Source: a virus. From it: a DNA stretch of 42,603 bases. Numbering within the stretch: position 1 is the stretch's first letter; each line of letters starts with the position of its first letter. The notes below the pieces were generated by a model, which was given only the letters and a program-made list of their open reading frames with translations, was not told the DNA's origin and made no database searches. Shown in pieces: positions 7,746 to 30,564 of this stretch. The stretch lies in IMG/VR virus record IMGVR_UViG_3300020202_000134, positions 1 to 42,603 of that record, one strand, 5' to 3'. The position numbers were made by a program, and so were the translations under genes.

Positions 7746-8201
7746 ATGAGCAGCATGAGCAATGAAGAGATTGCCATAAAAAAGGCCAAGTTGGTAGAGG
7801 CCTTTAAAGACCCCGAGTTCTTCATGAAGACCCAGGATGAGCAGTGTGAAGAGCTGGGGATTTCACGGGTAACGCTTTGGAAGTGGAAGAAAGAGTTCTC
7901 GCCTGCGGAGTGGGAGAAGATTCGGGATGGGGCGAGGCAGACATATGCGCAGTATGCTCCAGCGGTGGACATGGCGCTGATGGAGAAGGCCAAAAAGGGC
8001 GACGTGAAGGCGATTGAGCTGTTCTTCCAACGGTATGAGGGTTGGAGCGTGAAGCAGAACATGGAGATCCTGAACAAGAGCGACCTGTCGTCTTTGAGCA
8101 AAGAGCAGCTTTTGGAGAAAGTGCAGGGGATTTTGGGGCAAAAGCCTGCGATCCAGCCGGAAGTGGCGGAGGCTGAGGGGGAAAAGGCCGAGAATGAGTG
8201 A
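7746..8201 (+). CDS. Terminase small subunit (probable)
   Basis: A 151-aa protein with an N-terminal helix-turn-helix (about residues 32-55, EELGISRVTLWKWKKEF), a helical middle that includes KGDVKAIELFFQRYEGW, and an acidic tail. This is the layout of DNA-recognising terminase small subunits (phBC6A51-like family). It lies one gene upstream of the large terminase. Start ATG 7746 with CACGGAGC before it; ATG 7755 is an alternative. Confidence 0.75.
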   Translation: MSSMSNEEIAIKKAKLVEAFKDPEFFMKTQDEQCEELGISRVTLWKWKKEFSPAEWEKIRDGARQTYAQYAPAVDMALMEKAKKGDVKAIELFFQRYEGWSVKQNMEILNKSDLSSLSKEQLLEKVQGILGQKPAIQPEVAEAEGEKAENE

Positions 8202-9129
8202 TTTCTGGGGTGGTAAGCGGGTCTTCGTGACCGGGGGGCATGGATTCCTCGGGAAAAGGGTGGTGGCGGCGCTGAAAGCGCGGGCGGTGGAGGCGATTAT
8301 CACGCCGACGCGGCAGGAAGCGGACCTTCGGGACCCCACGCGGGCCAATACGGCGGTGTTGAACACCAAGCCGGACGTTGTCATTCATTGCGCCGGGGTG
8401 GTTGGCGGGCTTTTTGAGAATATGAAGCACCCGGTCTCGTTTCTGCGGGACAATTTGCTGATGGGGCTGAACATTCTGAAGGCGGCGAGCTTTGCGGGGG
8501 TGGAAAGGGTGGTCATGGTGGGGTCCAGCTGCATGTACCCGGAGAAATGCTGGCATCCCTACATGGCGAGCGACCTTTGGGACGGGTATCCGGCGGGCGG
8601 GAACGGGCCTTACGGCGTTTCCAAGCGGGTTCTGGCGGAAGCGGCCCGGATCTACTCTTGCGGGCGGATGGGGGTGGTTACCCCGGTGTTTCCGAACCTC
8701 TACGGCCCCGGGGACGACTTTTCTGAGAGCGGGCATGTCGTGAGCTCTCTGATTGCGAAGATGACTAAGGCCAAAGCGGAGGGGTTGCCTGAGTTGCCTA
8801 TGCGGGGGAGCGGGACCGCCAAGCGGGAGTTCATGTATGTCGATGACGCGGCGGAGGCCCTTCTTTTCGTGGCGGAGTATGTGCGGGACGGGATTTTGAA
8901 TATGGGAACCGGGCAGGAGATCTCTATCCGTGACCTGGCCGAACTTGTCAAGGTGGTGGTGGGGTATCAGGGGGGATTTCAGTGGGAGATGGCAAGCCAC
9001 TTTGACGGCCAGGACCGGAAGGTGATGGATTCGGGGATGGCGCGGCATCTGGGGTGGGCTCCGAAGATGGGGATGCCGGAAGGGTTGCGGCGCACGGTGG
9101 AGAGTTACTTGGGGGCGTTGGTTGGATGA
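8194..9129 (+). CDS. NAD(P)-dependent sugar epimerase/reductase, GDP-fucose synthase (Fcl)/ColC-like
   Basis: A 311-aa short-chain dehydrogenase of the nucleotide-sugar type. TGGHGFLG (residues 13-20) is the NAD(P) loop, Tyr140-x3-Lys144 the catalytic pair, Ser111/Ser112-Cys113 the GSSC motif and His181 the conserved His in NLYGPGDDF...H. GSSC-x-YP plus NLYGP...HV are hallmarks of Fcl and its relative ColC, which epimerise and reduce GDP-4-keto-6-deoxy sugars. It overlaps TerS by 8 bp and TerL by 8 bp, so it is expressed with packaging genes. It could supply a deoxysugar for the glycosyltransferases at 18.3-22.6 kb. Confidence 0.8.
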   Translation: MSDFWGGKRVFVTGGHGFLGKRVVAALKARAVEAIITPTRQEADLRDPTRANTAVLNTKPDVVIHCAGVVGGLFENMKHPVSFLRDNLLMGLNILKAASFAGVERVVMVGSSCMYPEKCWHPYMASDLWDGYPAGGNGPYGVSKRVLAEAARIYSCGRMGVVTPVFPNLYGPGDDFSESGHVVSSLIAKMTKAKAEGLPELPMRGSGTAKREFMYVDDAAEALLFVAEYVRDGILNMGTGQEISIRDLAELVKVVVGYQGGFQWEMASHFDGQDRKVMDSGMARHLGWAPKMGMPEGLRRTVESYLGALVG

Positions 9130-10555
9130 GGAATCGATCCTTCGGGAGCTTGTTCGGCGGCAACGGGAAAGCAAGTGCGAGTTCTTTGTGCCGAACGGGG
9201 TCCAGGAGCAGTTCATTCAGAAGGTGGGGAACGGGAAATACTTCGTTAACCTGCTGATCTGCGCGAACGGGGTGGGCAAGGACTGCGTGACGCAGAATAT
9301 CCTCGCCAACATCATCTGGGGGCCGCAGAACGAGTGGTTTAGAGGGTTGCCGATCTTTGAAAGATGGCCGTTCCCTGAGAAGCATATCAGGGTTGTGACT
9401 GAGAGCCAGCTGGTCACGGAATCAGGGCCGGTGGACAAGGAAATCGCGACGTGGTGGCCGAAGGGCCGCTACACCTCGCACCGGGGCGGGAAGCAGTATA
9501 TCACGCACTACAAGACCGATACTGGGTTCCTGATCGACAAGATGACCTATGAGCAGGAACCGGAAGAGTTTGAAGGCGTGAACCTGGGGATGGTGGTCTT
9601 TTCGGAGCCCCCGCCGGAAGACATCTACAACCGGTGCGTGAGCCGTCTAAGACGGGGCGGGATGATCCTGATCGTGATGACGCCCCTGACCAGCGCGGCG
9701 TGGATTCAAGACCGGCTCTTGGAGCATAAGGACGCCACGGTGGTCACGGGGGACATCGAGGCGAACTGCAAAGAGCATGGGATTCGCGGGAACCTGAACC
9801 ATGTGGACATTGAGCGGATGATCTCCCAGTGGACCCAAGAAGAGATCGAAGCCCGCGTGCATGGCCGGTTCGCGCACCTCTCGAATGTGATTTTGGGCAA
9901 TTCTTTTGAAAGACGGTTCCATATCATCCCGGACGATGTGGAGCCCAGCCCCGGGAGCCAGTGGTTCCATATCGTGGACCCGGCGCGGGGGAAACCCTGG
10001 GCGATGGGGTGGGGCTGGGTGGACCCCAGGGGGCAATTGACCTTCGACCGGGAGTATCCGCTGGAGCTTTGGACGAATTGCCGTGAGACGAGCTTGGCGA
10101 TTCGGGATTATGCGGACCTGATTCGGGTCATGGACGGCAATAACCCGATGGAAACCCGGATCATCGACCGCCACTTCGCCAATGCCAGGAACGATTACGG
10201 GACCACGCTAAAGCAGGATCTGGCGGAAAAGTTCGGGTTGGAGTTTCGGGACTCCTACTCTTGCGAAGAAGAAGTCGAGACCGGCATCCAGAAGGTGAAA
10301 GACCTCCTGTCGTTCAACAGGCGGATGCCCATCGACAGCCTGAACTTCCCGAGGCTTCGGGTGAAGGAGCGGTGCCGGAACATCATCCGCAGCCTTGAGC
10401 GGTGGGACCGGGACCCGCAGACCCTGAAGCCGAAAGCGGACAGCGTCTACAAAGACCACTTTGATTTGGTGCGATACGCAGCGATGGCGAACCTGGAAGT
10501 CTATGTGCCGAGGCCGTTTCAGCAGAGAGGCGTAAACTACGTACTGGGGCGATAA
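9122..10555 (+). CDS. terL: Terminase large subunit
   Basis: A 477-aa packaging motor. Walker A is ANGVGKD (residues 48-54), Walker B is MVVFSE (157-162) with Glu162 catalytic, and an IVMTPL strand follows as coupling motif. The nuclease half has Asp in FHIVDPARGKP, in ETRIIDRHF and in KDHFDLVRYA, the usual RNase-H-fold acids. Start is TTG 9122 inside the end of the epimerase gene; no ATG lies near the conserved N-terminus. The stop TAA shares one base with the next ATG. Confidence 0.9.
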   Translation: MDEESILRELVRRQRESKCEFFVPNGVQEQFIQKVGNGKYFVNLLICANGVGKDCVTQNILANIIWGPQNEWFRGLPIFERWPFPEKHIRVVTESQLVTESGPVDKEIATWWPKGRYTSHRGGKQYITHYKTDTGFLIDKMTYEQEPEEFEGVNLGMVVFSEPPPEDIYNRCVSRLRRGGMILIVMTPLTSAAWIQDRLLEHKDATVVTGDIEANCKEHGIRGNLNHVDIERMISQWTQEEIEARVHGRFAHLSNVILGNSFERRFHIIPDDVEPSPGSQWFHIVDPARGKPWAMGWGWVDPRGQLTFDREYPLELWTNCRETSLAIRDYADLIRVMDGNNPMETRIIDRHFANARNDYGTTLKQDLAEKFGLEFRDSYSCEEEVETGIQKVKDLLSFNRRMPIDSLNFPRLRVKERCRNIIRSLERWDRDPQTLKPKADSVYKDHFDLVRYAAMANLEVYVPRPFQQRGVNYVLGR

Positions 10556-11259
10556 TGTCTAACTGCGTCGTGATGGGCGGACTGGGAGAAGTGGGCCGCG
10601 CTCTGGCCACGCTTCTGAAGAAGAAGCACAAGGTTTACATTCTCGACAAACACGGCCGCCCGGACGCCGAGAAGGTGGACTTCCTGCATGTGGCGATCCC
10701 CTACGGCAAGGATTTCGAGAACTGGGTTAAGATTGAGACCGATTTCTACAAGCCCCGATATACGGTGATTCACAGCACGGTCCCCGTGGGCACGACGCGG
10801 TTGATTGGCGGCAAGATCGCCCACAGCCCGATTCGCGGCCAGCACAACGATAAGCGCTACGGTTTTTGGAAGTTCATCAAGTATGTGGGAGCCCTGGACA
10901 AGCGCACGCAAGCGGCGGTCACGGAGCATCTGGCGGGGGTAGGGCTCACGGTCTCCGGCGGCTGGAAGCCCGAAGAGACGGAACTGGCGAAGCTTTTGTG
11001 CCTTTCTCGTTACCTGAACGATTTGGCTTTCATGGAAACCGCGTCCCGGCTCTGCAAGCGATTCAGGGCCCGTCGCGACGTGGTGACCGACTGGACGATG
11101 ACCTACAACATGGGTTACGCCAAATCCAAGTGGATTCGCCCGCTCCTGGATTTCCCTGAAGGCAGGGTAGGCGGGCATTGTGTGATTCCCGTCTCCCGCA
11201 TGTTGGTGGAGCAGACCGAAAATGAGTGGCTGGATAAGAATTTAGCGTTGTTTCGATAA
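10555..11259 (+). CDS. Miniature nucleotide-sugar dehydrogenase-like protein
   Basis: A 234-aa protein with features of the UDP-glucose/UDP-ManNAc/GDP-mannose dehydrogenase family: NAD loop GGLGEVG (8-14), HSTVPVGTT (73-81), a central helix beginning near ELAKLL, and GGHC with Cys209 where the catalytic Cys of WecC-type enzymes sits. The family is normally about 400-450 aa; here the C-terminal sugar-nucleotide-binding domain is missing. It starts on the last base of the terL stop. It may be an active minimal enzyme or a repurposed fold. Confidence 0.65.
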   Translation: MSNCVVMGGLGEVGRALATLLKKKHKVYILDKHGRPDAEKVDFLHVAIPYGKDFENWVKIETDFYKPRYTVIHSTVPVGTTRLIGGKIAHSPIRGQHNDKRYGFWKFIKYVGALDKRTQAAVTEHLAGVGLTVSGGWKPEETELAKLLCLSRYLNDLAFMETASRLCKRFRARRDVVTDWTMTYNMGYAKSKWIRPLLDFPEGRVGGHCVIPVSRMLVEQTENEWLDKNLALFR

Positions 11260-16089: not shown

Positions 16090-16773
16090 ATGAAAAAACT
16101 TTTGTTGCCGTTATTGATGCTGGTTGGCCTTGTCCCTACACCAACCTTCTCGCACGATGGAACGCTCGACGCTTATGGGAATGGCGGGAGCACGACGACG
16201 CCTGGTCAAAGGATTCGCCGCGCCAGGGGGCATGACCGGGATAAGGAACGGGTCCTTTCCGGCGATGTGATTAACGGGATTTATGGGCGGGGGTTTAATG
16301 GGACCGCTTTCACCACCTCAGATAGCGCCTCTATCGAAATTCAGGCCGGGGAGAACTGGTCTACGACCGCGAATGGGAGCAAGGTGGTTATCAAGACCAC
16401 GCCTCTTACGAGTGTGACCGCCGCGACGAGCGTTTCCATTAATGGAACTGGGCTGATAGTGACTATGCCTTCTGCCCAGACGATTGCGGAAGGCGATGTT
16501 ATTACGGCGGATGCCTGTGGGACTGTGAAGCGTATCACCGCCGCTGGCGCGGTAACGACTAATACCACGAATACGTTCACGGCTCCAGCGGCGAGCAACG
16601 CCGGGTGCGTAATGTATCTGGTGAATGTGGGAGCCCAAAATATCACTCTGGATACCAATTCGAACTTCGTTTCGGCTGGGGCCGCGAATGTGGTGGTGAC
16701 GGCAAACGACGCTCTAATCGTCGCCTCCGACGGGACGGATTGGTATCAGATCAGCGCTTTGTTGGCCAACTAA
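16090..16773 (+). CDS. Secreted beta-rich fibre/decoration-like protein with signal peptide
   Basis: A 227-aa protein. Residues 1-21 are a Sec signal peptide (KK, then LLLPLLMLVGLVP, cleavage probably near FSH). The mature part is Thr/Ala/Gly-rich repeats of beta strands ending in SDGTDWYQISALLAN, a typical end of phage head-fibre or tail-fibre domains. It follows the capsid gene, so a head-decoration or fibre role is plausible. A signal peptide on a virion protein is unusual. Ribosome binding site AAGGAGAAT. Confidence 0.55.
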   Translation: MKKLLLPLLMLVGLVPTPTFSHDGTLDAYGNGGSTTTPGQRIRRARGHDRDKERVLSGDVINGIYGRGFNGTAFTTSDSASIEIQAGENWSTTANGSKVVIKTTPLTSVTAATSVSINGTGLIVTMPSAQTIAEGDVITADACGTVKRITAAGAVTTNTTNTFTAPAASNAGCVMYLVNVGAQNITLDTNSNFVSAGAANVVVTANDALIVASDGTDWYQISALLAN

Positions 16774-16775
16774 AA

Positions 16776-17804
16776 ATGATCAGGCTAAGCCACGTCAGCA
16801 TCCCCTACGAAACCGCCGAGAGGGTCAAGCAAATGATCCTTCGCGGCGAGATCGGGCAGTCAGAGGCAATCGAGGAGTTTGAAGCGGCTTTCGCTCGATG
16901 GCTGGGGGTGCGGCATTGCGTGGCGGTGTCTTCAGGGACCATGGCGGACACAATCGCCTTGGCCGTTCTAAAGCACTTTTACCCTGGGCGGAATGAGGTG
17001 GTTGTCCCGGCCCTTACGTTCATCGCTCAGGTGAATGCCATTACCTATAACGGCCTAAAGCCCGTCTTTGTGGACCATGGAGATGATCCGTCTGAAGTGG
17101 TTGGCAGGGATACTCTGGCGCTTTTTCCGGTGCATCTCCTAGGGAAACCTGTGGATCTCCAGGGGTGGCGATCCCTGCATTTCCCGATCGTGGAAGACAG
17201 CTGCGAGGCGATGGGGTCTTCGTTCTTCAATAAGTCTTGCGGGGCTGTGGGGGAAATGGGGACGTTCTCCTTCTTCCCTTCGCACACGATCAGCACCGGA
17301 GAGGGCGGGATGATCACTACGAACAGCGAAGATCTCGCCAACATGGCCCGCCGGATGAGGAACCACGGCAAGATATCATCCGCCGATTTTCATTTCGATG
17401 TCATTGGCTTTAACGGCAAGATGACCGCGATCCAGGCGGCGATTGGCCTGGGGATGGTTCGAGAGTTGGACAGCATTATCAAGAGACGCCGCCAGGTGTT
17501 TTTTGAGCTTGGCGGGGAAGAGAAACCCGGTGAATTTATCAGCCCACATGCTTTTCCTGTTATTTGCGAGTCAGAGCAGAGGCGCGACTCCCTGCTCCAG
17601 CATTTCCGCGCCGCCGGAATCGAGTGCCGTAACCTCTTCAGCTCTATCCCCACGCAGGAAAAAGCGTACGCGCATCTGGGCCATAAGCTTGGCGATTTCC
17701 CTGTTGCTGAAGATATTGGACGCCGGGGGCTATACGTCCCATGTCACTCAGGGCTTCGGGCAGAAGACATTCAGAAGATAAAGGCGGTCCTGAGTGAAGC
17801 TTAA
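16776..17804 (+). CDS. DegT/DnrJ-fold PLP enzyme with His in place of the PLP lysine (ColD/RfbH-like dehydratase)
   Basis: A 342-aa fold-type-I aminotransferase-family protein. It keeps the PLP-pocket motifs (SSGTMADTIAL, VEDSCEAMGS, GFNGKMTAIQAAIG), but at SFFPSHTISTGEGGM the lysine is His170. His at this place defines the dehydratases ColD and RfbH/DdhC, which remove the C3 hydroxyl of keto-deoxysugars instead of transferring an amino group. ATG 16776 directly follows the previous stop; an in-frame start at 16605 lies within the previous gene. It heads the sugar-modification block. Confidence 0.75.
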   Translation: MIRLSHVSIPYETAERVKQMILRGEIGQSEAIEEFEAAFARWLGVRHCVAVSSGTMADTIALAVLKHFYPGRNEVVVPALTFIAQVNAITYNGLKPVFVDHGDDPSEVVGRDTLALFPVHLLGKPVDLQGWRSLHFPIVEDSCEAMGSSFFNKSCGAVGEMGTFSFFPSHTISTGEGGMITTNSEDLANMARRMRNHGKISSADFHFDVIGFNGKMTAIQAAIGLGMVRELDSIIKRRRQVFFELGGEEKPGEFISPHAFPVICESEQRRDSLLQHFRAAGIECRNLFSSIPTQEKAYAHLGHKLGDFPVAEDIGRRGLYVPCHSGLRAEDIQKIKAVLSEA

Positions 17805-18297
17805 TTTGGGCGGGCGGGACAAACCCATCCCGGGATTCCTGACTGTGGACCTCTTCGAAGGGGCGGATATTCGATCAGACATCGGGGAATTAAAAGGGGT
17901 CGAAGCCGGCTCTGTCGATGAAATCTATGCGAGCCATTGTTTAGAACATTTCAGCCATGCCAAGACGCCGGACGTTCTCCGCACATGGCGACGGGTGTTG
18001 AAGCCAAAAGCCAAGGCTTATATCGCCGTCCCTGACTTCGATGCCATGGCGAAACTTTATCAGAAGTTTGGCCTGACTGATTTCATCCGAAACATGCTCT
18101 ACGGCGACCAGGGCTACGAATTGGCCTATCACTACACGGCCTTTACGTTCCCGACGCTGGCCGCTGCTTTGGTGAATGCGGGATTCCAGGATGTGAAGCG
18201 GATTATGGATATGCCTTACGGGCTGAAGGATTGCTCATCGAATATCGATTCTCTCACACGGCAGCCTATTAGCCTGAACGTGGAGGCAACGGCTTGA
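17794..18297 (+). CDS. SAM-dependent methyltransferase
   Basis: A 167-aa class I methyltransferase of the methyltransf_11/predicted SAM-dependent type: an N-terminal LNLGGRDKPIPGFLTVDL strand-loop, ASHCLEHFSH as the acidic post-motif I segment, and a VLKPKAKAYIAVPD strand. Start GTG 17794 overlaps the upstream stop by 11 bp. In this setting it probably methylates a sugar or a glycosyl intermediate; protein or DNA targets are not excluded. Confidence 0.7.
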   Translation: MKLNLGGRDKPIPGFLTVDLFEGADIRSDIGELKGVEAGSVDEIYASHCLEHFSHAKTPDVLRTWRRVLKPKAKAYIAVPDFDAMAKLYQKFGLTDFIRNMLYGDQGYELAYHYTAFTFPTLAAALVNAGFQDVKRIMDMPYGLKDCSSNIDSLTRQPISLNVEATA

Positions 18298-19124
18298 AGG
18301 TCTCCGTCTTTGGCCCGGTAAAAAATGAGGCCGACTTCATCGGTTACTCGATTATGGACTGCCTAGAGCATGTCCACGAATTTGTTTATGCCGTTGCCAA
18401 ATCGGATGACGGGACGGACGAACTCCTGGACTATATCAAAGAGAAATACGCCGGGGATAAGCTGAAGATCCTCCGCTCTCCTGAATTCGATTTTAACCCT
18501 CACGACATGGCGGCATATAACAACGCTTTCAACGTCTGCATTCAGCAGGCCACGGGAGACGCCGTTTGGTTCAAGCATCCCGACCAGATTTGCCTTAACG
18601 CCGAGAAGATCAAAGACATGTCGAAAGACGCTCTGGCCTGGACCACAAATATGACGAGCTACGCCGGGGACTTCAATACGCAGATAACCAAAGGCCGGGC
18701 GACCCAGTGGAAGAACATTCACGCCAAAAAGTTTGGGCTTCACTACTACGGCGGGTATGGCTCAGTCAATGAAGACATGTACCACAAGGATATTACCGGC
18801 CGGGCCTATGACTTCCACGGTACGGATTTCAAGCGATATCCCTTCCGCGTGGCGGATTCCGGGTTAAACGTGAATCACTATTGCGAACTAAAGGGCTACA
18901 AGCGGCGGTTTGAGAAAATGAAGTCCTGCCTGAAGACGCTCTATCCCGGCTGGACCGACGCCCGGATTGCCGAGGTCGCCACGCAGCATCCCCGCGTCAC
19001 CCTTGAGCAATCATCCGACGCTTACGGACATTTTGAATTTAAGAAGACGAACGCTCCCGTGCCGGACGTGTTTCAGCGGTATCGGAGCGAATTTGAGCAG
19101 GTCCTGGGGAGGAAATCAGCATGA
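18294..19124 (+). CDS. Glycosyltransferase family 2-like protein
   Basis: A 276-aa protein opening SVFGPVKNEADFIGYSI with KSDDGTDEL at about residue 37, the usual nucleotide-sugar-binding start of GT2-like enzymes that act on nucleotide-sugar donors. Later Tyr/His-rich segments are atypical. TTG start at 18294 overlaps the previous TGA; no ATG gives the conserved N-terminus. Confidence 0.6.
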   Translation: MKVSVFGPVKNEADFIGYSIMDCLEHVHEFVYAVAKSDDGTDELLDYIKEKYAGDKLKILRSPEFDFNPHDMAAYNNAFNVCIQQATGDAVWFKHPDQICLNAEKIKDMSKDALAWTTNMTSYAGDFNTQITKGRATQWKNIHAKKFGLHYYGGYGSVNEDMYHKDITGRAYDFHGTDFKRYPFRVADSGLNVNHYCELKGYKRRFEKMKSCLKTLYPGWTDARIAEVATQHPRVTLEQSSDAYGHFEFKKTNAPVPDVFQRYRSEFEQVLGRKSA

Positions 19125-20626
19125 AAGTGTCATTCGTTATCCCGATTTATGGGAAAAAGCCGGAGCAATTGAGAAGGTGCCTAAAGTCGCTGCTTGATCA
19201 ATCCTATAAGGACATTGAGATTATTTGCGTGTTTGACGGCCCCAACGAAGAATTGCAGAAGCTGGCCGAGCCTTTCCCGGTGAAGATCGTGAATCCTGGG
19301 GAGAGGGGTGGTGCGCCGAAGGCTCGAAACACTGGCGCGAAGGTCGCGACGGGCGACATTATCTGCTTCTGGGACGCGGACACCTACGCTGTCCCTGAGA
19401 TGGTCAAGGTGTGGGTGGAGCGATTTACGAAGAATCCGCAAGTCGATTTCCTCTATTCAGGGTATCGCTGGACGGACCCGAATATCCCCGGATACGAGTC
19501 TGAGCAGATTTTCGATCCATGGCTGATCACGAAATACAACTTCATTTCAACCATGTTCCCCGTGAAACGGGAAAAGCTGGTGGAGTGGGACGAGTCCTTG
19601 ACAGGCCTCCAGGATTGGGACTTTTGGCGACGGATCATTCAGAACGGAGCCAAGGGCCTCTACGTTCCTTGCGGCCCTAACGCGGCGGGGGCGGCGTGGG
19701 AGTCCGACTACCCGGATAAGCAGAGTATTTCAGGGGATACGGAGCAGAACACGTTCAAAAACCGTGTCCTGGCGATCCGCCGGAAATTCAATGATCCGGC
19801 CCCGGATGTGCTGGTTTATGGCGGGGCCTTCCGTTACGACGCAATCCGCCTGGCGAAACTCATCGGGGCGGACTACTTCTGGAATCCCGCTTACATCACC
19901 CACGACTACAAAATGTGCCTTTTCGTGGGGTTTAACCCCCCGGAATTTGAGCAGGACATGGCCTTCCTTCTCAAGACAAACCGGGACACGAAAGTTGCGA
20001 TTTACTGGATGGGGATTGATGCCGAGGCTCTCGGGACGATGCCCTTCTTAGAGGTCAAGAAGTTCGTCGCCGCTATCAACCGGGATGTCGCTTATAACTT
20101 CTGCATGGACGAGCGAACGCTCCAGGAGCTGGAGGAGCTGGGGATCAAGGCTGAGGTGGTGCCTTTCCCGCGCCCGGCCGGGAACATTATCACGACCTAC
20201 CCGGAAAAGTTCAAGGTGCTGGCCTTTGGTGACCAGGAGAATAACGCCCTGATCGATTCCGTGATTAAGGCCCTCCCGGACGTGGACTTCGAAAAAGTGG
20301 TCCCGAACAAGGGTTATCGGTTTGAGGACTACTCCGTGTTGGTTCAATTCACCGTTGACAAGACTCTCCAAGATGGGCCTCGGAATGCCTTGATCGGGGG
20401 GCGGTGGATGATCTCGAACATCCAGGCCCCTTATACGGGGTACGTCGATACAACGGACGCTGCCAAAGCGGTGGATGAGATCGTGACCAAGCTCCGGGGC
20501 CTCCAAGAAGTGAAGACCCTTAATGCTGAGGCCCAAGCCCATTACTTGGATCTAACGGACCCGGAGAAATTCAAAGCCAAAATCAAGGGATTGACGGCTC
20601 CGCAGTTGGAGGTAGTCAATGCCTAA
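19121..20626 (+). CDS. Glycosyltransferase, GT2 domain with additional C-terminal domain
   Basis: A 501-aa protein. Residues 1-220 are a GT2 fold: SFVIPIYGKKPEQLRRCLKS at the start, the ARNTGAKVATG loop at 68-78 and metal-binding DAD at 85-87. Residues about 225-490 form a second domain (DVLVYGGAFRYDAIRLAKL, then several Rossmann-like strands) that could be a GT-B-like half. Overlaps neighbours by 4 and 8 bp. Likely elongates or caps a glycan. Confidence 0.7.
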   Translation: MKVSFVIPIYGKKPEQLRRCLKSLLDQSYKDIEIICVFDGPNEELQKLAEPFPVKIVNPGERGGAPKARNTGAKVATGDIICFWDADTYAVPEMVKVWVERFTKNPQVDFLYSGYRWTDPNIPGYESEQIFDPWLITKYNFISTMFPVKREKLVEWDESLTGLQDWDFWRRIIQNGAKGLYVPCGPNAAGAAWESDYPDKQSISGDTEQNTFKNRVLAIRRKFNDPAPDVLVYGGAFRYDAIRLAKLIGADYFWNPAYITHDYKMCLFVGFNPPEFEQDMAFLLKTNRDTKVAIYWMGIDAEALGTMPFLEVKKFVAAINRDVAYNFCMDERTLQELEELGIKAEVVPFPRPAGNIITTYPEKFKVLAFGDQENNALIDSVIKALPDVDFEKVVPNKGYRFEDYSVLVQFTVDKTLQDGPRNALIGGRWMISNIQAPYTGYVDTTDAAKAVDEIVTKLRGLQEVKTLNAEAQAHYLDLTDPEKFKAKIKGLTAPQLEVVNA

Positions 20627-21302
20627 GATCAAGGCGTCTTTCGTTATCCCGGTCTATAACGGGCAAGCCTTTCTGGCTCAGACCATAGAGTCGTGCCTGC
20701 GGCAGACGGAAAAGAAGATAGAGGTCATCGTGGTGGACGACGGGTCTACCGATGGGACTCGGCGGATCATCGACTATTACTGCCGCAAGGATAACCGAGT
20801 AAAGTTCCTTCTTCATGAGAAAAACATGGGCCGCTCAATTGCGAGGAATGGCGGGAATGCCAACGCACAGGGGGACGTGATTCTCGTGCTAGACGCGGAC
20901 GATATCGCTTCCGCTGATCGCGTGGCGCAGACGCTTAACTACTTCAAGAAGAATCCCACGGTGGATATCGTCTATGGCCAGTTCAACGTCTTGGACGCGG
21001 TGGGACGATTTCAGGAAGGATTCGATGTGATGCCCTTCGACTTCGAGCGGGTGAAGACGGACAAGTTTACCTATATCTGCCACTCCACGATGGCTTTCAA
21101 AAAGACTGTTGCTGAGAAGGTCCAGTATACGGATGGCGACTATTCCAAGCATGCCATTGATGACTGGAAATTCCAGGTGGACGCGCACAAAGCCGGATTT
21201 AAGTTCGGAGCGATTAGAAAGATTTTGGGGGCTTATCGCCACATCCCGAAACTGCGCGATGAGGGGAAGATATTGGAGCTGAAAAACGCATGCCTAAACT
21301 AA
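20619..21302 (+). CDS. Glycosyltransferase family 2
   Basis: A 227-aa minimal GT2 catalytic domain: SFVIPVYNGQAFLAQTIESC, DDGSTDGT at 40-47, NMGRSIARNGG loop, DADD at 92-95 binding the metal, and a C-terminal DDWKF motif in the acceptor region. Starts 8 bp before the end of the previous gene; ends overlapping the next by 13 bp. No membrane segment, so it acts on cytoplasmic substrates. Confidence 0.8.
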   Translation: MPKIKASFVIPVYNGQAFLAQTIESCLRQTEKKIEVIVVDDGSTDGTRRIIDYYCRKDNRVKFLLHEKNMGRSIARNGGNANAQGDVILVLDADDIASADRVAQTLNYFKKNPTVDIVYGQFNVLDAVGRFQEGFDVMPFDFERVKTDKFTYICHSTMAFKKTVAEKVQYTDGDYSKHAIDDWKFQVDAHKAGFKFGAIRKILGAYRHIPKLRDEGKILELKNACLN

Positions 21303-22573
21303 GAGCCAAGGTCGCCTTTATCTGCACGGAAGTCGCCGGGGTTTCCTTCTATAGGATTGTCCAGCCCGCTCGTTATTTGGAGAGCAAGGGACATCAGGTC
21401 CGCGTCCTCGGCTACAAGAAAGACAACTGGATGCGCCCTGAGTGGGAAGGCCTTAGCGAGATTAGCTATGGGGATGTGGTACGGACGGATATTGAGAATG
21501 CCTGCCGGTGGGCGGATATCGTGGTTTGGATGGCGCTGCACACCTCCGACAGCTTCCAGCTATTTATGGATCTGCGGAAAGCGCTCCCGGATAAGCCGTT
21601 CGTGACGGAGTTTGACGACATTGTCTTCAGCATCCCCGCCCACAATATCGCTTCCACGGTCTATTACCCTGGCAGCCCTTTGACGGCGATTTCCCACGCA
21701 CAAATGAAGATGTCTGACGCTTTGATCGTTTCCACGCCGGGGCTTAAGGAGCAGCTGGTCCCCTACAACGAGAACATCCATGTGGTGGAGAACGCGATTG
21801 ATTTAGCCCTCTGGCGGTGTTCTTCCCCAGGCCGCCGGAGGGTGACTCTTGGCTGGGTGGGCGGGGGAACCCACACGAAGGATTTGGAAGGCGTGAAGGA
21901 CGTTGTTTTTGAAGTCTTGGCCCGGAACAAGAACGTGGTCTTTCGTTGCGTTCACGGTTGCCCGGAATTCTTCAAGCATAAGCCGGAATGCCCTTGGCTG
22001 GACACGAACGACCCACGCTACGACAAGGCATCAACTTGCCCGAAGTGCGGCGGGGTTGATCGGATCGAGTGGACGCATGATTTTAAGTCCATTGAAAAAT
22101 ACCCGCGCTGGGTTTCCCGCCAGGGCTTTGATATCGGGATTGCCCCTCTTGAGGACAACCTTTTCAACCGGGCCAAATCAAATCTTCGCTGGCTGGAATA
22201 TTCGGCCATGGGTGTGCCTACCGTTGCCGCGAATGTGGGGCATTTCAAAGAAGTCCTCCGCCACGGGGAAACGGGATTTTTAGCAGACACTCAGAACGAG
22301 TGGATCGAAACGATTGAAAGGCTTATCCAAAACCCTGAGCTAAGAAGGGCTGTTGGGCAGGCTGCCAGATCAGAAGTCAAGATGAACTGGAATCCGCAAA
22401 CACTGGGGAAGAAATACAAAACGGTGCTTGAGGAGATTCTAGATGCCAAGTCTTACACGCGCGAACCTCGTGTCGCGGATTCAGCTCTTAATCAACGACC
22501 CGGCGGCGCAGCGGTTCACAGCGGCCCAGGTGCAGGACGAAATTCAGAAGGCGCAGGAATGGTTTGTCCTTGA
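21290..22573 (+). CDS. GT4-type glycosyltransferase with Cys-rich insertion
   Basis: A 427-aa GT-B enzyme. The C-terminal half has the EX7E-type donor site (LRWLEYSAMGVPTVAANVG followed by GETGFLA). The N-terminal half begins VAFICTEVAGVSFYRI. Between them, about residues 220-265, are Cys pairs (CVHGC, a single Cys, CPKC) forming a possible zinc ribbon that typical GT4 enzymes lack. The last about 43 codons overlap the start of the adaptor gene (22443) in another frame, an unusually long overlap. Confidence 0.7.
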   Translation: MPKLRAKVAFICTEVAGVSFYRIVQPARYLESKGHQVRVLGYKKDNWMRPEWEGLSEISYGDVVRTDIENACRWADIVVWMALHTSDSFQLFMDLRKALPDKPFVTEFDDIVFSIPAHNIASTVYYPGSPLTAISHAQMKMSDALIVSTPGLKEQLVPYNENIHVVENAIDLALWRCSSPGRRRVTLGWVGGGTHTKDLEGVKDVVFEVLARNKNVVFRCVHGCPEFFKHKPECPWLDTNDPRYDKASTCPKCGGVDRIEWTHDFKSIEKYPRWVSRQGFDIGIAPLEDNLFNRAKSNLRWLEYSAMGVPTVAANVGHFKEVLRHGETGFLADTQNEWIETIERLIQNPELRRAVGQAARSEVKMNWNPQTLGKKYKTVLEEILDAKSYTREPRVADSALNQRPGGAAVHSGPGAGRNSEGAGMVCP

Positions 22574-23120
22574 AACCCGCGCTTTAACTGACAACACCAC
22601 AGATACCTCCGTTGCCGATCAGGCGGCCTATGATCTTCCCTCCGACGTTCTGGACATTAAGCGGATGGCCCACAAGGGGCTGGAACTTCGCCGTATCTCA
22701 AAGTTCGAGCTTGATCGCTATACAGGGCAGGACTGGACGGACGATAAAGGCACTCCTAAGTTTTACTATGTCGATCTAGACCCCAACAATAAGAAGTACT
22801 ACCTCTATCCCATCCCACAAGGGGAGGACGCCGGGGCGAACGTCGCCGTCGAATACATTAAGCTGCCGCCCGCCCTTTCCTCCGACAGCTCGACTCCATT
22901 TGACGGCCATACATTAATGGTCGCCTACCATGACGCTCTCGCTTACAAGGCGGCAGCGACGCTCTTAGATATTCAACCCACTCAAGAATCGATTGTGATG
23001 GCCCAGCGTTACGAAAAGCGTTTTGACGAGCTGGTGTCTCATTGCATCGAAACCTTTAAGGCCCTGTCTGCGACCCAGCCCATTCGTATGCGTGGGGGGA
23101 GGAACGTCGGTGAACTTTAA
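22443..23120 (+). CDS. Head-tail adaptor (head completion) protein
   Basis: A 225-aa protein with LTRANLVSRIQLLINDP at the N-terminus, ADQAAYDLPSDVLDIKRM in the middle and HDALAYKAAATLLD near the C-terminus, the pattern of podovirus adaptor proteins that bind under the portal. Its first 131 bp overlap the end of the GT4 gene. ATG 22443 is the only suitable start for the conserved helix. Confidence 0.7.
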   Translation: MPSLTRANLVSRIQLLINDPAAQRFTAAQVQDEIQKAQEWFVLETRALTDNTTDTSVADQAAYDLPSDVLDIKRMAHKGLELRRISKFELDRYTGQDWTDDKGTPKFYYVDLDPNNKKYYLYPIPQGEDAGANVAVEYIKLPPALSSDSSTPFDGHTLMVAYHDALAYKAAATLLDIQPTQESIVMAQRYEKRFDELVSHCIETFKALSATQPIRMRGGRNVGEL

Positions 23121-25551
23121 ACGCGCCCTCTTATCCGCCCTTCTCATCCTGCTGCCGGTTATCACCCACGCGGACCCCCAGGTCATCCCCCAATTCCGGG
23201 GGCTCCATAACTCCGAAAACGCCGTCCTCATTAATGACGACGAAGCCCAAGATCTCCAGGATGTGGATATCACAGATACGGGGAAAGGCATTAGGAAGAG
23301 GGCGGGCTACAACCAATTTAAAACGATTGGGACATCTACTTGGGGCGTCCGAGGTGGATACTATTTTAGGGACACAGGCGGGACTGATCTTATAATCCAT
23401 GCGAACAATCGGAGTATTTTTTACAGCGAAGCTGGCGGTAATTATACGGCATTTGTCACAACGGATACCGAGGGGAGTTATTACGATTTTGTTGATTCTT
23501 ATGGTTATATTTGGAGAGCCAATAGTAATCGGGATGAAATCCTCCGTTATGATGGAACGACTGTTACATACTATCCCTCGCATCCCAAGGGGGATCAAAT
23601 TGAAGCATTGCCTGACCGTTTAGCAATATCGGGGACTTCTGCTAATCCAAACAGAGTTCACTTTTCAAAAATAGCGGACTTTACAAGTTTTACTACTGGG
23701 ACTGACGAGGCAGATGCTTTTACAGAAGACATTGGGCTTCCTGGCCAAAAAGTCAACGCTATAAAAGTTGCTTGTGGTTCGGGCGTCCTGGCATGGACAA
23801 GGGACTCAACATTTCTCATTACGGCCCAAAGCCAGTATGACTTAAGTCCTACCGTAAGTGTGTCGAATACCATCGGAACGGTTCAGCCTAGCACAATTAT
23901 TCAAGATTATGGGATTACTTATTGGCAGGGACAGGATGGCCATTTCTACTCTTATGATTGCAATGCGATTAAAAAATTATCGGAAAAATTAGATGTATCA
24001 GAATTTGTTTCAGGGGCAAGCCGCCTTTGGACTGCGACATCTCAAAGTGATTTTGAAACAGGGACAATCGGAGCCGGCTTAAGCGCATCAGCTTCTCCTG
24101 GGGGCCTGGTTTTCTCTCCGACCGTAATTGATTCTTTTTCTGACGGAGATTATACATCTACTCCTGCCTGGCAAGAATTTGATGTTTCGCAAGGGGCATT
24201 CTCTATCACTGGGGGGGAGCTGAAATTTGATTCTGCGGCAACCTCAGCAGCCAATGGCGGCCTTCGGCTTGCGAATTCTTATGGAAATGTAGGGGCATGG
24301 GAATTTGACTATAGATTTGATGCTAACGGCGGATACCCTGTATTCAAAATATGCAGTGAAACGCCAGCAACCATTACCCCTTCTTCTTCTGCCTCTGATG
24401 ACTGCTACGCTGGCCAAGTTATTAGGGGTGGCGTGTCTGAGATTTTTGAAAATGACACATCAAAAGCAAATTCCACATCTCCTACACAAACAGCCGGGGT
24501 TGATTACAATTTTGTTCTAGAGCGAGGGGCTTCCAACGAGATTAAGTTATTCATTGACGATGTTCTTATCGTCAGCGCCAATGATGCATCAATCGTTAAT
24601 ATTTCAACCATTTCCTTCGGTGTTGCACAAATCCTATCAGCAACTCCGAACTGGTTTTTCGACGACATTAAATTTAACCATTTTGTATCTACCTACCAAA
24701 CAACCGCAATCAGCATTGGCAGTTTAATTACGTCATGGGGCCGGTTGGTCGCAGAAGAAGCCCTTGATGGCGCAACAATTGCCTATGCAGTTTATACAGA
24801 CACAAACACTTCTATAACAATTACAAATTCATCTACTTTTGTGTCGAGCCAGACAATTTTAAATAACGAATTTATCACTCTTCCAACGGCTCCCTATCTG
24901 ACCATCGCCGCTTTTTTCACAAGGACGGCCCATACCCAAAACCCAACAATTGAGTCTATTTCAATCACATGGGATGAAGGCTCAGTTATACGGCATTTCG
25001 GTTCTGTGGATAGTGACCATAGGCTTTTGTGGAGCGTGGGTGAAGGGAATACATCTGTAACAAATAAGACATACATTTACGACCCAAGATTCGATTCTTG
25101 GCTTAAATACTCATTCCCTATTGATGCCCCAGCAAAGGTAAGCGACTTAATCTATTTTGGGGGCGTCTCCACAGGAGTTGTTTATACATGGCCGGTTGGT
25201 GAGAATGACAACGGCAGCGCCATTACGGCTTACTGGAAGTCAAAGGACTTTATCGGGGGAGACCCTTTCGTTGAGAAGGACTTCCTTAATTACAGCTTCC
25301 TTGGGAAGGCCGAAACGGGATCAAACCTCGATATCGTCTACACGATCAACGCCTCCTCCTCCGTCTCTAATAACCACTCTTTAACTGACCCGAACAGCCT
25401 TCCTCTCCGCCGGGTCAACGCCCATCTTCCCAGCGGGAAGGTCGGGAGCTTTATTAACTTCAAGTTCGGCAATGACGACGCTAACGCGCCTTTTGAGATT
25501 TACGGGTTCAAGTATGACTACCGGCTTCGGCCGTGGCGGGTTCTTCAGTAA
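23110..25551 (+). CDS. Large secreted tail protein (nozzle/beta-propeller-like) with lectin-like insert
   Basis: An 813-aa protein read from GTG 23110 (ribosome binding site GGGGGAGGA). Residues 1-21 are a Sec signal peptide (ALLSALLILLPVITHA, Ala-x-Ala-like cut). Residues about 25-330 have repeating strand blocks (RGGYYFRDTGG, YGYIWRANSN, PNRVHFSKIADF), as in podovirus tail-tube/nozzle proteins of beta-propeller type. Residues about 345-540 resemble a concanavalin/LamG jelly-roll (SDGDYTSTPAWQEF, WEFDYRFDANGG). The C-terminus resumes the propeller (DPRFDSWLKYSFPI). DNA in the middle is clearly more A+T-rich than the neighbours. Confidence 0.65.
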   Translation: MNFKRALLSALLILLPVITHADPQVIPQFRGLHNSENAVLINDDEAQDLQDVDITDTGKGIRKRAGYNQFKTIGTSTWGVRGGYYFRDTGGTDLIIHANNRSIFYSEAGGNYTAFVTTDTEGSYYDFVDSYGYIWRANSNRDEILRYDGTTVTYYPSHPKGDQIEALPDRLAISGTSANPNRVHFSKIADFTSFTTGTDEADAFTEDIGLPGQKVNAIKVACGSGVLAWTRDSTFLITAQSQYDLSPTVSVSNTIGTVQPSTIIQDYGITYWQGQDGHFYSYDCNAIKKLSEKLDVSEFVSGASRLWTATSQSDFETGTIGAGLSASASPGGLVFSPTVIDSFSDGDYTSTPAWQEFDVSQGAFSITGGELKFDSAATSAANGGLRLANSYGNVGAWEFDYRFDANGGYPVFKICSETPATITPSSSASDDCYAGQVIRGGVSEIFENDTSKANSTSPTQTAGVDYNFVLERGASNEIKLFIDDVLIVSANDASIVNISTISFGVAQILSATPNWFFDDIKFNHFVSTYQTTAISIGSLITSWGRLVAEEALDGATIAYAVYTDTNTSITITNSSTFVSSQTILNNEFITLPTAPYLTIAAFFTRTAHTQNPTIESISITWDEGSVIRHFGSVDSDHRLLWSVGEGNTSVTNKTYIYDPRFDSWLKYSFPIDAPAKVSDLIYFGGVSTGVVYTWPVGENDNGSAITAYWKSKDFIGGDPFVEKDFLNYSFLGKAETGSNLDIVYTINASSSVSNNHSLTDPNSLPLRRVNAHLPSGKVGSFINFKFGNDDANAPFEIYGFKYDYRLRPWRVLQ

Positions 25552-27704: not shown

Positions 27705-29554
27705 TGGCAGGGCCTTGGGAAAAGTACCAAGCAGTAACGCCTTCCCCGTCTGGCCCATGGACGAAGTATCAGGGATCAAGTGCGGGAGCCATGGCCACAG
27801 CGGACCCTCTCGCCGCAACGGCTGCTGGCATGGTTTCGCCTGCGGTGGATGTTCCAACCGACACCTCTCCCGCTGGCTACGTCAAGCGGCTTTTTAACGC
27901 CTCCAAGGAGATGTTCATCCCGTCTATGGAGAACGTGAAGCGTCTTTTCAGCCCGTCGGCGGGGCAGTTCGGGGTTTCGAAAGTGCTTGAGGAGGAGGGG
28001 CGACGTGTGGGCGGAGCGGTGCGGAGCGCGGCGGAGAACACGGCGGAACAAATCGCTACTTCGAAGTTCGGGCAACAGAACCCAAACCTCTCGGCGGGCA
28101 TGGGCGCTGCCTATTCCACTGTGGCGGACGTGGCTTCTGATTCCCTCACTCCGTCAGCCTTTCAGCAGCAGCTCGGCGGTGAAGGGCTTGGGATAGCGGC
28201 TAAGGCCAGCGGGCTAGGGAAGGCGCTAAAGGGGGCAGCTGTTGAGCCTGGCCGCCGGGCGCTTGGATTCCAGAAATCCCAGTTGAACAGCACGAAATCC
28301 CCGTTTGAGGCGAACCGCAAATTAGCGCAGGCGAATAGAGCGACGGAGACGATGTTGGAAAGAGGGGATATCCCGACCCTTGGGAGCCCAGACAAGGCGC
28401 AGAAAAATGCTTTAGGTTTGCTGGCGGAGGGGAAAAGAGAAGCGGGGGACGCTTTAAATTTGGTGGATGAGATTGCGGGGGTTAAGCCGACTTCGACATC
28501 GGCGACGGGAACATCCGGCGCTCCGGGGGCAACTGGTCGTCAATCTCGTGCATTGCCTGGAGCCATTGAGAAGTACCTTGGAAGCCCTCGGGAAATTTAT
28601 CCCGAGAGTGTAAAAGGTCTTGAAGCCGCTGATAAATTGCTTCCTGATCTTCCTTCATATGATACTAGGATAACCCGGACGCCCAAATATGTCAAGGCCA
28701 AAATCGAGGCGGCTGAAACGCTTACTAAATACGCGGCAGAGCGGAAGGTGCAGCCGACCTCTGAGTTTTATGAGGGGCTTTTCAGGGAGATGCACGACGA
28801 GGCGGTCAATGCCGCCATGGCCGGGCCGGAAGCCCAGAAGGCCTTTTTGGCTAAGTTCCCTTCCTTTGACGCTGACTTTCCAAAACTCAGCAACTTAAGA
28901 GGGCTGCGGACCCAATATGCCCAGCGGATTGGGGACCTCGAAAAAAGCCTCGCCCAGATCACGGAATTGGATTTCGATCAGGCCTTCTCTAAGGTTATCA
29001 ACCCCCAGAACGATGCGGAATTGTCCGCCGCTGTCGCAGCCAGGCGGGACGTTAGCGATCGGATGGTAAAGGGCCAGATATCTCTAAATGACCTCGACTA
29101 CCTTCGGCAGTATTGGGGGCAGCTGGGGTTTCGTGACAAGACCGTGGGGACCGCCCAGGCGAATGTCTACCGGAAGGCGTGGAAAGCCGCTGGGGACTAT
29201 ATCAAGCAGCATATTGGACGGATCGATCCGGAACTTGCGAAGTCCTATGTGGCTGGAATGAAAAAACAGGAAGCAGCCATGACAGCCATGAAGGGCATCA
29301 ACAATAAGATGGCCGGGGAGGCCGGGAACATGGCTGTAAGCTTCCCTGGGATTGTCGTTGGCGCAACGCGGGGGGATCTCCCGAAAGCGATTGCAGCGAC
29401 TGGCGCGTTTGAGGCGATCAAGCGTCGCGGGGCCGCTCCCATTGCCAATACCCTCTATAAAGCCGGGAAATCTTTGGAAAAGGCTCCCCGGACAGGGCTC
29501 GGGCAATTTACGGCGTTATTGGCTAGGGCTAAAGCCCGAAAGGATAAGAAATGA
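27704..29554 (+). CDS. Large internal virion/ejection protein (probable)
   Basis: A 616-aa protein. ATG 27704 overlaps the upstream TAA (TAATG), better than an in-frame start at 27689. It opens MAGPWEKYQAVTPSPSGPW, resembling the repeated PWxKY modules at the N-termini of phage ejection proteins. The rest is long Ala-rich helix with Arg/Lys clusters and a glycine-containing segment near 545-575. No lytic transglycosylase motif recognised. It overlaps the fibre gene by 4 bp. Confidence 0.55.
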   Translation: MAGPWEKYQAVTPSPSGPWTKYQGSSAGAMATADPLAATAAGMVSPAVDVPTDTSPAGYVKRLFNASKEMFIPSMENVKRLFSPSAGQFGVSKVLEEEGRRVGGAVRSAAENTAEQIATSKFGQQNPNLSAGMGAAYSTVADVASDSLTPSAFQQQLGGEGLGIAAKASGLGKALKGAAVEPGRRALGFQKSQLNSTKSPFEANRKLAQANRATETMLERGDIPTLGSPDKAQKNALGLLAEGKREAGDALNLVDEIAGVKPTSTSATGTSGAPGATGRQSRALPGAIEKYLGSPREIYPESVKGLEAADKLLPDLPSYDTRITRTPKYVKAKIEAAETLTKYAAERKVQPTSEFYEGLFREMHDEAVNAAMAGPEAQKAFLAKFPSFDADFPKLSNLRGLRTQYAQRIGDLEKSLAQITELDFDQAFSKVINPQNDAELSAAVAARRDVSDRMVKGQISLNDLDYLRQYWGQLGFRDKTVGTAQANVYRKAWKAAGDYIKQHIGRIDPELAKSYVAGMKKQEAAMTAMKGINNKMAGEAGNMAVSFPGIVVGATRGDLPKAIAATGAFEAIKRRGAAPIANTLYKAGKSLEKAPRTGLGQFTALLARAKARKDKK

Positions 29555-30564
29555 GAAAGGGGCTATTCCTTCTTCTGGTCTTCTTTGCAACTTCTGTCCA
29601 TGGCGAGATCCGTCGTATTCGTGGCGTCGAGAGCCGGGAAGACACGGCGGCGATCAATTACAACTTCCGGCAATTGGATGAGGAGCTAAGGAACACCGTC
29701 CATCGGACATCCACAGAAACAATTCGGGGCTACAAGTATTTTGTGAATCCCGTGGATTTTGTGACAGTTGTTGTTGACACGGCAACTATTTCGCACGGGG
29801 ACTTTCAAACTATTTACGTGGATACGATCACCGCCGCTTACAGCGTTTACATGGCGACGGTTGGTGGGAATGTAGGGATCGGGACAACGAGCCCGTTGTC
29901 CAATTTCTCGCTTACAACGGAGTCGGGAATTACCATAGGGACAAACGATTTCAGCAGCAGTTGGAACTTCGACCAGGGCGGGATTCACATGGAGATGCCT
30001 TTTGAGAAAGACGAGGCATCAAGCGGTGGATCGGGGTCTATAAAAATATTCTCCAACAATACGCATGACGAGACATTGCAGGGCACTATGGCCCTCGTTA
30101 CATCCGCGACGCCAGGATTGAGGCGGCTTAAGCTTGAAGCTATTGAACAAAATGTCGCCTTTCGGAACATGACTCTTAATGAGAACGGTGGGAACATCGG
30201 TATTGGGATAAGCCAGCCCGCAAGGCTTATTCATGCTGTGTCAACGGCCACCTCGACCGGATACATCGAAATGCTTCGCCTCGAGGGTCAAACCTTGTCG
30301 AACGGCTGGGAGCGCGGCATTGCATTTACAGGGAATTCCGGCGCTGTCGAGGTCGGCCGTGTTTCTGGCTTTCTGACGGGAACAGAGCGGCATTTAAGGT
30401 TTTACACGAATGGGACTCAGCAAGCGGCGTTCGACAATAATAGCACCGCTGGGAATACCCGATTTTTGATTTACGACGTGGACAACGGAACCATTGAGCG
30501 CGTGAGCGTCGGGGCTGCCGACTCCTGCGGAGCCGGATTCAAGTGTCTGCGAATTCCCAACTAA
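29551..30564 (+). CDS. Tail fibre-like protein with signal peptide
   Basis: A 337-aa protein. Residues 1-18 (RKGLFLLLVFFATSVHG) form a Sec signal peptide. The shaft contains GGNVGIGTTSPLSNF and GGNIGIGISQPARLIH, the repeat type of phage fibres and surface beta-prisms. It ends VGAADSCGAGFKCLRIPN, a tail seen in many fibre ORFs. No S74 chaperone domain. It lies just before the lysis genes. The ATG overlaps the previous TGA. Confidence 0.65.
   Translation: MRKGLFLLLVFFATSVHGEIRRIRGVESREDTAAINYNFRQLDEELRNTVHRTSTETIRGYKYFVNPVDFVTVVVDTATISHGDFQTIYVDTITAAYSVYMATVGGNVGIGTTSPLSNFSLTTESGITIGTNDFSSSWNFDQGGIHMEMPFEKDEASSGGSGSIKIFSNNTHDETLQGTMALVTSATPGLRRLKLEAIEQNVAFRNMTLNENGGNIGIGISQPARLIHAVSTATSTGYIEMLRLEGQTLSNGWERGIAFTGNSGAVEVGRVSGFLTGTERHLRFYTNGTQQAAFDNNSTAGNTRFLIYDVDNGTIERVSVGAADSCGAGFKCLRIPN

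What the first reader, a model, noticed from the sequence alone, without database searches (positions are those of the whole stretch)
16776..17804. DegT-fold enzyme with His replacing the PLP lysine: a ColD/RfbH-type dehydratase in a phage
At SFFPSHTISTGEGGM the Schiff-base lysine is His170 (CAC). In ColD and RfbH/DdhC the same change turns an aminotransferase into a 3-dehydratase making dideoxysugars. Coupled with the Fcl/ColC-like gene at 8194, the phage could run the last two steps toward a colitose-like GDP-sugar from a host GDP-4-keto-6-deoxymannose pool.
Basis: partly seen in the sequence, partly recalled or inferred. Interest (0 to 1): 0.7.

Follow-up and report, generated by a model that had tools for sequence, protein, structure and literature searches.

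The report
Phage sugar-dehydratase with catalytic histidine
A bacterial virus carries an enzyme that looks like a sugar aminotransferase but has the histidine of the deoxy-sugar dehydratases, so it probably strips an oxygen from an activated sugar used to coat the host or the virus; such genes turn out to be common in environmental viruses.

Summary
Observation confirmed. The ORF at 16776-17804 (342 aa) is a full-length DegT-fold protein, and CAC at 17283-17285 puts His170 where the catalytic lysine normally sits. It is no isolated oddity: its 38 best-scoring relatives in the loci fetched here all have His there, and trees split 80 His from 39 Lys proteins by one branch (support 99), also with the motif removed. 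Three further class-marking positions agree. A PLP/PMP-dependent sugar 3-dehydratase is the best reading. It is neither ColD nor RfbH proper: it lies in a third His branch with no reference enzyme in my trees, and it lacks the Fe-S cysteines (ColD-like chemistry). GDP-4-keto-6-deoxymannose is the likeliest substrate: GMD lies next to the relative in a sister virus and near it in a bacterium, weaker GMD-like genes in two more viruses, and the window has an Fcl. Colitose is not shown: no GMD in the record, and Fcl and this gene are 7.6 kb apart. A sister phage lacks both genes but keeps other sugar genes, so this is a swappable glycosylation cassette. His-type DegT genes are common in viral contigs and already sit beside GMD and Fcl in named cyanophages.

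The parts
16776..17804 (+). His-type DegT-fold protein, predicted NDP-sugar 3-dehydratase (342 aa)
   Evidence: PF01041 E=1.3e-72; His clade in trees; AF2 model pLDDT 91.3, pTM 0.91
17283..17285 (+). codon 170, CAC (His) at the position of the Schiff-base lysine
   Evidence: aligned column 80 His / 39 Lys
8194..9129 (+). GDP-L-fucose-synthase-like SDR (possible C5-epimerase/C4-reductase partner), just before TerL
   Evidence: NF047922 226 bits, below its cut-off 500; best solved match 7ll6 GDP-L-fucose synthase E=4.7e-53; S111/C113/Y140/K144/H181 line up with E. coli Fcl (residue roles recalled)
17794..18297 (+). methyltransferase-like protein, overlaps the end of the DegT ORF
   Evidence: PF08241 E=3.1e-5, 24.9 bits, cut-off 21.2; 51% identical copy in sister phage L262
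18294..19124 (+). unassigned protein of the sugar cassette (glycosyltransferase-like by eye only)
   Evidence: no family at E<=0.001; 60% identical partial copy next to the methyltransferase in L262
19121..20626 (+). family-2-type glycosyltransferase
   Evidence: PF00535 E=3.6e-25; 44% copy in L261
20619..21302 (+). family-2-type glycosyltransferase
   Evidence: PF00535 E=2.3e-38; 54% copy in L261
21290..22573 (+). glycosyltransferase group-1-like
   Evidence: PF13524 E=2.5e-12; PHROG 7162 glycosyltransferase E=3e-44
10555..11259 (+). short protein with a weak nucleotide-sugar-dehydrogenase match
   Evidence: TIGR03026 E=2.4e-5, 23 bits, cut-off 190; 50% copy after TerL in L261
16090..16773 (+). 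secreted-looking protein between capsid gene and DegT
   Evidence: signal-peptide-like N-terminus read by eye; 42% copy after the capsid gene in L261; no family

Best explanation
The protein is a working PLP/PMP-dependent nucleotide-sugar 3-dehydratase of the His type, not an aminotransferase. His170 acts as the acid/base: PMP forms a Schiff base with the 4-keto group of the sugar, the C3 hydroxyl is expelled, and, since P0001 has no [2Fe-2S] cysteines, the intermediate is released by hydrolysis as in ColD, with glutamate regenerating PMP, to give a 4-keto-3,6-dideoxy sugar. The likeliest substrate is GDP-4-keto-6-deoxymannose made by the host. The phage Fcl at 8194 could then epimerise C5 and reduce C4 (a colitose-type product), and the methyltransferase and glycosyltransferases at 17794-22573 would place the sugar on the host surface or on virions. 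Shown here: the His substitution, its conservation in the clade, clade membership, missing cysteines, pocket residues, cassette context and a confident fold. Inferred: activity, substrate, product, acceptor.
For: His at the catalytic column in the 38 best-scoring relatives. One branch separates 80 His from 39 Lys rows (SH-aLRT 99); the same with 32 residues around the motif deleted (99) and with dTDP-, CDP- and GDP-context reference plasmid genes added (73 versus 36, support 100). Class-marking neighbours agree: the residue before the catalytic one is A/G/S in 154 of 157 His contexts but Asn in 89 of 130 Lys contexts; P0001 has Ser169, as ColD has Ser187. Column 58 is D or N in 53 of 80 His rows and Leu in 36 of 39 Lys rows; column 197 is His in 73 of 80 His rows and in 10 of 39 Lys rows; P0001 has Asp58 and His197. 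D141 and S165 are invariant in the 80 His rows. No Cys in the loop that carries four in E1-like members. Context: GMD over its curated cut-off directly beside the relative in L106 (virus) and 3.6 kb away in L180 (Patescibacteria, with Fcl); a weaker GMD-like SDR directly upstream in L107 and L108 (160 and 148 bits, cut-off 415). Fcl within 5 kb in 37 of 145 His-type loci against 1 of 102 Lys-type loci (Fisher p=1e-8, loci not independent). Mechanism of the His class: review PMC8987622, passages read.
Against: Nearest solved structure is the Lys aminotransferase GDP-perosamine synthase by sequence (176.7 versus 92.5 bits) and marginally by fold (Z 42.9; E1 H220K mutant 41.1; ColD H188N mutant 40.4). 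The protein is short (342 aa) and lacks insertions present in ColD and E1, so substrate contacts may differ. No GMD in the record. In the close subgroup L109, L110, L026, L013 and L027 show no GMD or Fcl by the thresholds (several loci cut by contig ends); the SDRs of L109 and L110 score best as GalE/dTDP-type. No characterised member of the third His branch was found.
Confidence: 0.66

Rival explanations
1. His-type 3-dehydratase acting on another nucleotide sugar (CDP-, dTDP- or UDP-4-keto-6-deoxyglucose type), so the product is not colitose and the Fcl serves a separate GDP-fucose branch.
For: Known His enzymes use CDP (E1), dTDP (SpnQ) and GDP (ColD) sugars (E1, ColD, SpnQ in PMC8987622; SpnQ's nucleotide recalled). 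SDRs near the relatives in L109 and L110 score best against GalE and dTDP-glucose dehydratase models. Fcl and DegT are 7.6 kb apart in the window.
Against: GMD beside the closest viral relatives' representative L106 and near the closest bacterial one L180; Fcl associates with His-type, not Lys-type loci; the nearest solved enzyme binds a GDP-sugar; the CDP- and dTDP-context references fall on the E1 branch, not here.
Confidence: 0.22
2. A degenerate or non-catalytic aminotransferase relic kept for another role (for example binding a sugar nucleotide).
For: Loss of the Schiff-base lysine would abolish ordinary aminotransferase activity; the protein is short.
Against: His is invariant in the clade together with D141, S165 and E144, and P0001 keeps the His-class states at columns 58, 169 and 197; confident full-length fold; the gene lies in an operon-like run of sugar genes.
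Confidence: 0.07
3. A PMP-dependent aminotransferase that works without the lysine (SpnQ-like side activity), giving an amino sugar such as perosamine.
For: SpnQ transaminates when no reductase is present (PMC8987622, passage); best solved match is GDP-perosamine synthase.
Against: The same passage says ColD and E1 do not do this; P0001 has Ser before the His as in ColD.
Confidence: 0.05

Closest known systems
ColD, GDP-4-keto-6-deoxymannose 3-dehydratase (2gms, E. coli)
   Same: DegT fold, Ser-His at the catalytic site, Asp/Ser pocket residues, no Fe-S cysteines, GDP-mannose-pathway genes near some relatives
   Different: different branch in all three trees; phmmer 92.5 bits only; single His motif (SHTI versus SHHI); shorter loop after residue 197; 342 versus 390 residues
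RfbH / E1, CDP-4-keto-6-deoxyglucose 3-dehydratase (3bcx)
   Same: catalytic His, DegT fold; some members of the third branch carry four loop cysteines
   Different: P0001 and nearly all of its subgroup lack the cysteines; NCBIfam RfbH model 135.5 bits versus cut-off 423; different branch
GDP-perosamine synthase PerA (3bn1)
   Same: closest solved structure by sequence and fold; same presumed substrate GDP-4-keto-6-deoxymannose
   Different: Lys instead of His, Asn instead of Ser before it, Leu instead of Asp at column 58, Gln instead of His at column 197
Cyanophage GMD-Fcl-DegT(His)-GT11 cassettes (S-CAM7, ACG-2014f)
   Same: phage-borne His-type DegT next to GDP-fucose genes
   Different: ColD-clade enzyme, complete with GMD; phages annotated Kyanoviridae with genomes of about 215 kb

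Membership tests
DegT/DnrJ/EryC1/StrS superfamily | full-length PF01041 match over its cut-off | tested here: met
   245.5 bits, cut-off 19.8; fold Z about 40 to family structures
His-type NDP-sugar 3-dehydratase class | His in place of the catalytic Lys, conserved among closest homologues | tested here: met
   38 of the 38 best-scoring relatives; 80/39 split by one branch
His-type NDP-sugar 3-dehydratase class | 3-dehydration activity | not testable with these tools
   needs an assay
ColD (GDP-4-keto-6-deoxymannose 3-dehydratase) | no [2Fe-2S] cysteines in the loop after the catalytic site | tested here: met
   0 Cys in residues 195-215 of P0001; 0 in L106-L110 and L180
ColD (GDP-4-keto-6-deoxymannose 3-dehydratase) | falls in the clade of ColD 2gms | tested here: not met
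   separate third branch
ColD (GDP-4-keto-6-deoxymannose 3-dehydratase) | GDP-4-keto-6-deoxymannose as substrate | tested here: inconclusive
   gene-context support only; no GMD in the window
RfbH / E1 | four Cys for the [2Fe-2S] cluster and NCBIfam NF011936 over cut-off | tested here: not met
   no loop Cys; 135.5 of 423 bits
Lys-type sugar aminotransferases (PerA and others) | Schiff-base lysine | tested here: not met
   His170
GDP-L-fucose synthase / ColC (8194-9129) | Ser-Cys-Tyr-Lys-His catalytic set of Fcl (residue roles recalled) | tested here: met
   aligned with 1bws and 7ll6, positions
GDP-L-fucose synthase / ColC (8194-9129) | NCBIfam NF047922 over its cut-off | tested here: not met
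   226 of 500 bits

The most novel reading that the evidence does not exclude
P0001 belongs to a third, uncharacterised branch of His-type sugar dehydratases shared by many environmental viruses and candidate-phylum bacteria (Omnitrophota, Elusimicrobiota, Patescibacteria and others). Fe-S cysteines occur in some members and are absent in others, and its bacterial members often sit with Fcl, an epimerase, a guanylyltransferase-like gene and a transketolase/PDH-E1-like pair: a new dideoxy-sugar (perhaps branched-sugar) pathway that phages sample to coat host or virion.
Probability: 0.35. Interest if true: 0.6.

Novelty: new member of a known kind. Interest (0 to 1): 0.4.

Why it matters
If the phage makes a 3,6-dideoxy sugar, it could change host surface sugars or decorate virions, a testable route to superinfection exclusion or altered adsorption. 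Family models such as PHROG 3139 and PF01041 call these genes 'aminotransferase', which this residue contradicts.

Tried and rejected
Sequencing error or chance: rejected, relatives from other contigs have His. ColD or RfbH membership: rejected by tree position in three runs. E1-type Fe-S chemistry: rejected for P0001 (no loop Cys). Tree driven by the motif itself: rejected, same split after deleting 32 residues. GMD hidden in the window: not found by tblastn with the S-CAM7 GMD or the TIGR01472 model. Foreign base composition of the cassette: DegT GC 0.56, Fcl 0.62, capsid 0.60, whole record 0.53, nothing decisive. A single-sequence viral scan with P0001 found no relative; alignments were needed. 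The viral structure library gave only distant matches. Host could not be told: no tRNA, and no host is written in the related named phage record looked at.

Literature: searches listed no paper whose title or abstract start is about this branch or about phage colitose. Read as passages only: PMC8987622, PMC7725333, PMC9602691, PMC3037559, PMC4691112; all others seen in search listings only. The review PMC8987622 was first found in the listing. That the ColD S187N/H188K double change makes it an aminotransferase is recalled; only the entry title and letters of 3gr9 were seen.

Full report
OBSERVATION. The ORF at 16776-17804 gives a 342-residue protein that matches PF01041 over almost its whole length (E=1.3e-72). 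Residue 170 is His, codon CAC at 17283-17285. In the phmmer alignment to GDP-perosamine synthase 3bn1 the His sits opposite the Lys, and in the MAFFT alignment it shares the column of ColD's first His and E1's first His. The record is a 42,603-base virus record with TerL, SU10-type portal, N4-gp56 capsid, SU10 adaptor and an integrase.

IS THE HIS REAL AND KEPT? A viral scan with P0001 alone found nothing. In a blastp of P0001 against all ORFs of these loci and of the phage and plasmid loci then held, the aligned residue was His in 134 and Lys in 62 ORFs of loci numbered below L180 (viral contigs plus the phage and plasmid loci), and His in 23 and Lys in 68 of the genome loci. These are not frequencies: one pattern itself demanded a His, whereas those did not touch the site. 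The 38 best-scoring rows are all His, from 45% down to 31% identity: L108, L106, L180, L107, L109, L026, L013, L110 and so on; the first Lys row is L118 (35.5% identity, 185 bits).

PHYLOGENY. A tree of 119 proteins (80 His, 39 Lys; the top hits, thinned samples of the rest, fetched phage and plasmid proteins, and references ColD, E1, PerA and 7b0d) separates His from Lys by one branch (SH-aLRT 99). Deleting 32 residues around the motif leaves that split unchanged. P0001 lies in a 12-row subgroup (support 99) with viruses L106-L110, L026, L027, L029, L013, a Patescibacteria genome (L180) and a Gimesia genome (L184), inside a larger His branch (49 rows, support 98; 96). ColD with cyanophage S-CAM7 and ACG-2014f sequences (16 rows), and E1 with S-H68 (7 rows), form other His branches. 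Adding plasmid-borne references with dTDP context (S. lavendulae), CDP context (Labrenzia; Methylovirgula) and GDP context (Haladaptatus), and thinning near-copies, put the dTDP and CDP ones with E1 and the Haladaptatus one with ColD; P0001's branch stayed apart (support 96). Trees are unrooted and quick (no bootstrap), so the direction of change is not claimed.

ACTIVE SITE. Signature columns agree with the His class: Ser169 before the His (A, G or S in 154 of 157 His contexts; Asn in 89 of 130 Lys contexts; rows without full context left out), Asp58 (Leu in 36 of 39 Lys rows) and His197 (His in 73 of 80 His rows, Gln commonest among Lys rows). ColD has Ser187-His188, and the double mutant 3gr9 carries Asn-Lys there (title). 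Gly54, Asp141 and Ser165 are invariant in the 80 His rows. The loop after residue 197 has no Cys in P0001, L106-L110, L026, L013 and L180, one in L027, but four to six in several others of the same branch. The review PMC8987622 (passages) states that E1 and SpnQ hold a [2Fe-2S] cluster and ColD does not, and that the His is the catalytic acid/base. So ColD-like hydrolytic chemistry is inferred. An AlphaFold2 model (21 sequences, pLDDT 91.3, pTM 0.91) is a standard family fold: GDP-perosamine synthase Z 42.9, E1 H220K mutant 41.1, ColD H188N mutant 40.4; these values barely rank function.

CONTEXT. L106 has a gene over the GMD cut-off (459 bits, cut-off 415) directly downstream and then a Lys-type DegT; L180 has GMD (584 bits) and an Fcl (287 bits, cut-off 500) upstream. 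L107 and L108 have a GMD-like SDR directly upstream (160 and 148 bits). Counting one best DegT per locus, Fcl lies within 5 kb in 29 of 123 viral and 8 of 22 genome His loci, but in 1 of 44 viral and 0 of 58 genome Lys loci; GMD in 32 of 123 and 1 of 22 against 4 of 44 and 6 of 58 (Fisher p 1e-8 and 0.01; loci are related to each other, thresholds are mine). In bacteria of the larger branch, and in the plasmid of S. magneticus, a recurrent set is Fcl, an epimerase, a guanylyltransferase-like gene and a transketolase/PDH-E1-like pair around the His-type DegT; not every locus has every member.

THE WINDOW'S CASSETTE. The Fcl-like gene 8194-9129 matches GDP-fucose synthases (7ll6 E=4.7e-53), with the Ser, Cys, Tyr, Lys and His of E. 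coli Fcl aligned. No GMD is found. The sister phage L261 (TerL 63%, portal 51%, capsid 49%) has the 10555 gene, the 16090 gene and two of the glycosyltransferases in the same order but neither Fcl nor DegT. L262 has the methyltransferase and the next gene but no DegT in its 15.8-kb record. L260 (capsid 89%) shows no Fcl between the 7746 homologue and TerL. A more distant podovirus, ctSlx955, has glycosyltransferases after its capsid gene. So DegT and Fcl look like swappable parts of a sugar cassette among late genes. Whether the sugar goes to the host or the virion is open.

NOVELTY. Phages with such enzymes exist in named records: S-CAM7 (annotated as a CDP-4-keto-6-deoxy-D-glucose-3-dehydrase), ACG-2014f, S-H68. 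PMC9602691 (passages) describes GMD and GDP-fucose synthase in cyanophage S-SCSM1. What is less ordinary is the third His branch, for which I found no characterised enzyme among the references and the solved structures matched.

VERDICT. A new phage member of a known enzyme kind. 3-dehydratase is likely; GDP-4-keto-6-deoxymannose as substrate is the best guess; colitose is possible and unproven.

Noticed in passing
L029:8594-10699 (IMGVR 3300025725_000026): The His-type DegT gene of this virus carries an in-frame intein-like insert in the E-D-A / C-E-S-F-G active-site motif (seen by reading the translation; profile search shows the split match).
   Followed up: partly
window 16090-16773, 29551-30564 and the N-terminus within 23023-25551; L262 ORFs at 6998, 7366, 9737, 10220: Several proteins among the late genes begin with signal-peptide-like N-termini, unusual for virion or tail genes (by eye only).
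   Followed up: no
L006, L112, L189, L190, L193, L196, L197: A pyruvate-dehydrogenase-E1/transketolase-like pair recurs near the His-type DegT in several phyla; Methylovirgula plasmid L275 has RfbH followed by a transketolase pair, suggesting a two-carbon-branched sugar.
   Followed up: partly
window 10555-11259: 234-aa protein with a weak nucleotide-sugar-dehydrogenase match, kept between TerL and portal in sister phage L261 (50%).
   Followed up: partly
L003 (Podoviridae ct7QV12, MW202713.1): A Lys-type DegT lies directly before TerL in a 42.7-kb podovirus from Manatee Spring.
   Followed up: no
L260: Capsid 89% and portal 80% identical to the window but TerL only 45%: mosaic exchange of the terminase.
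   Followed up: no
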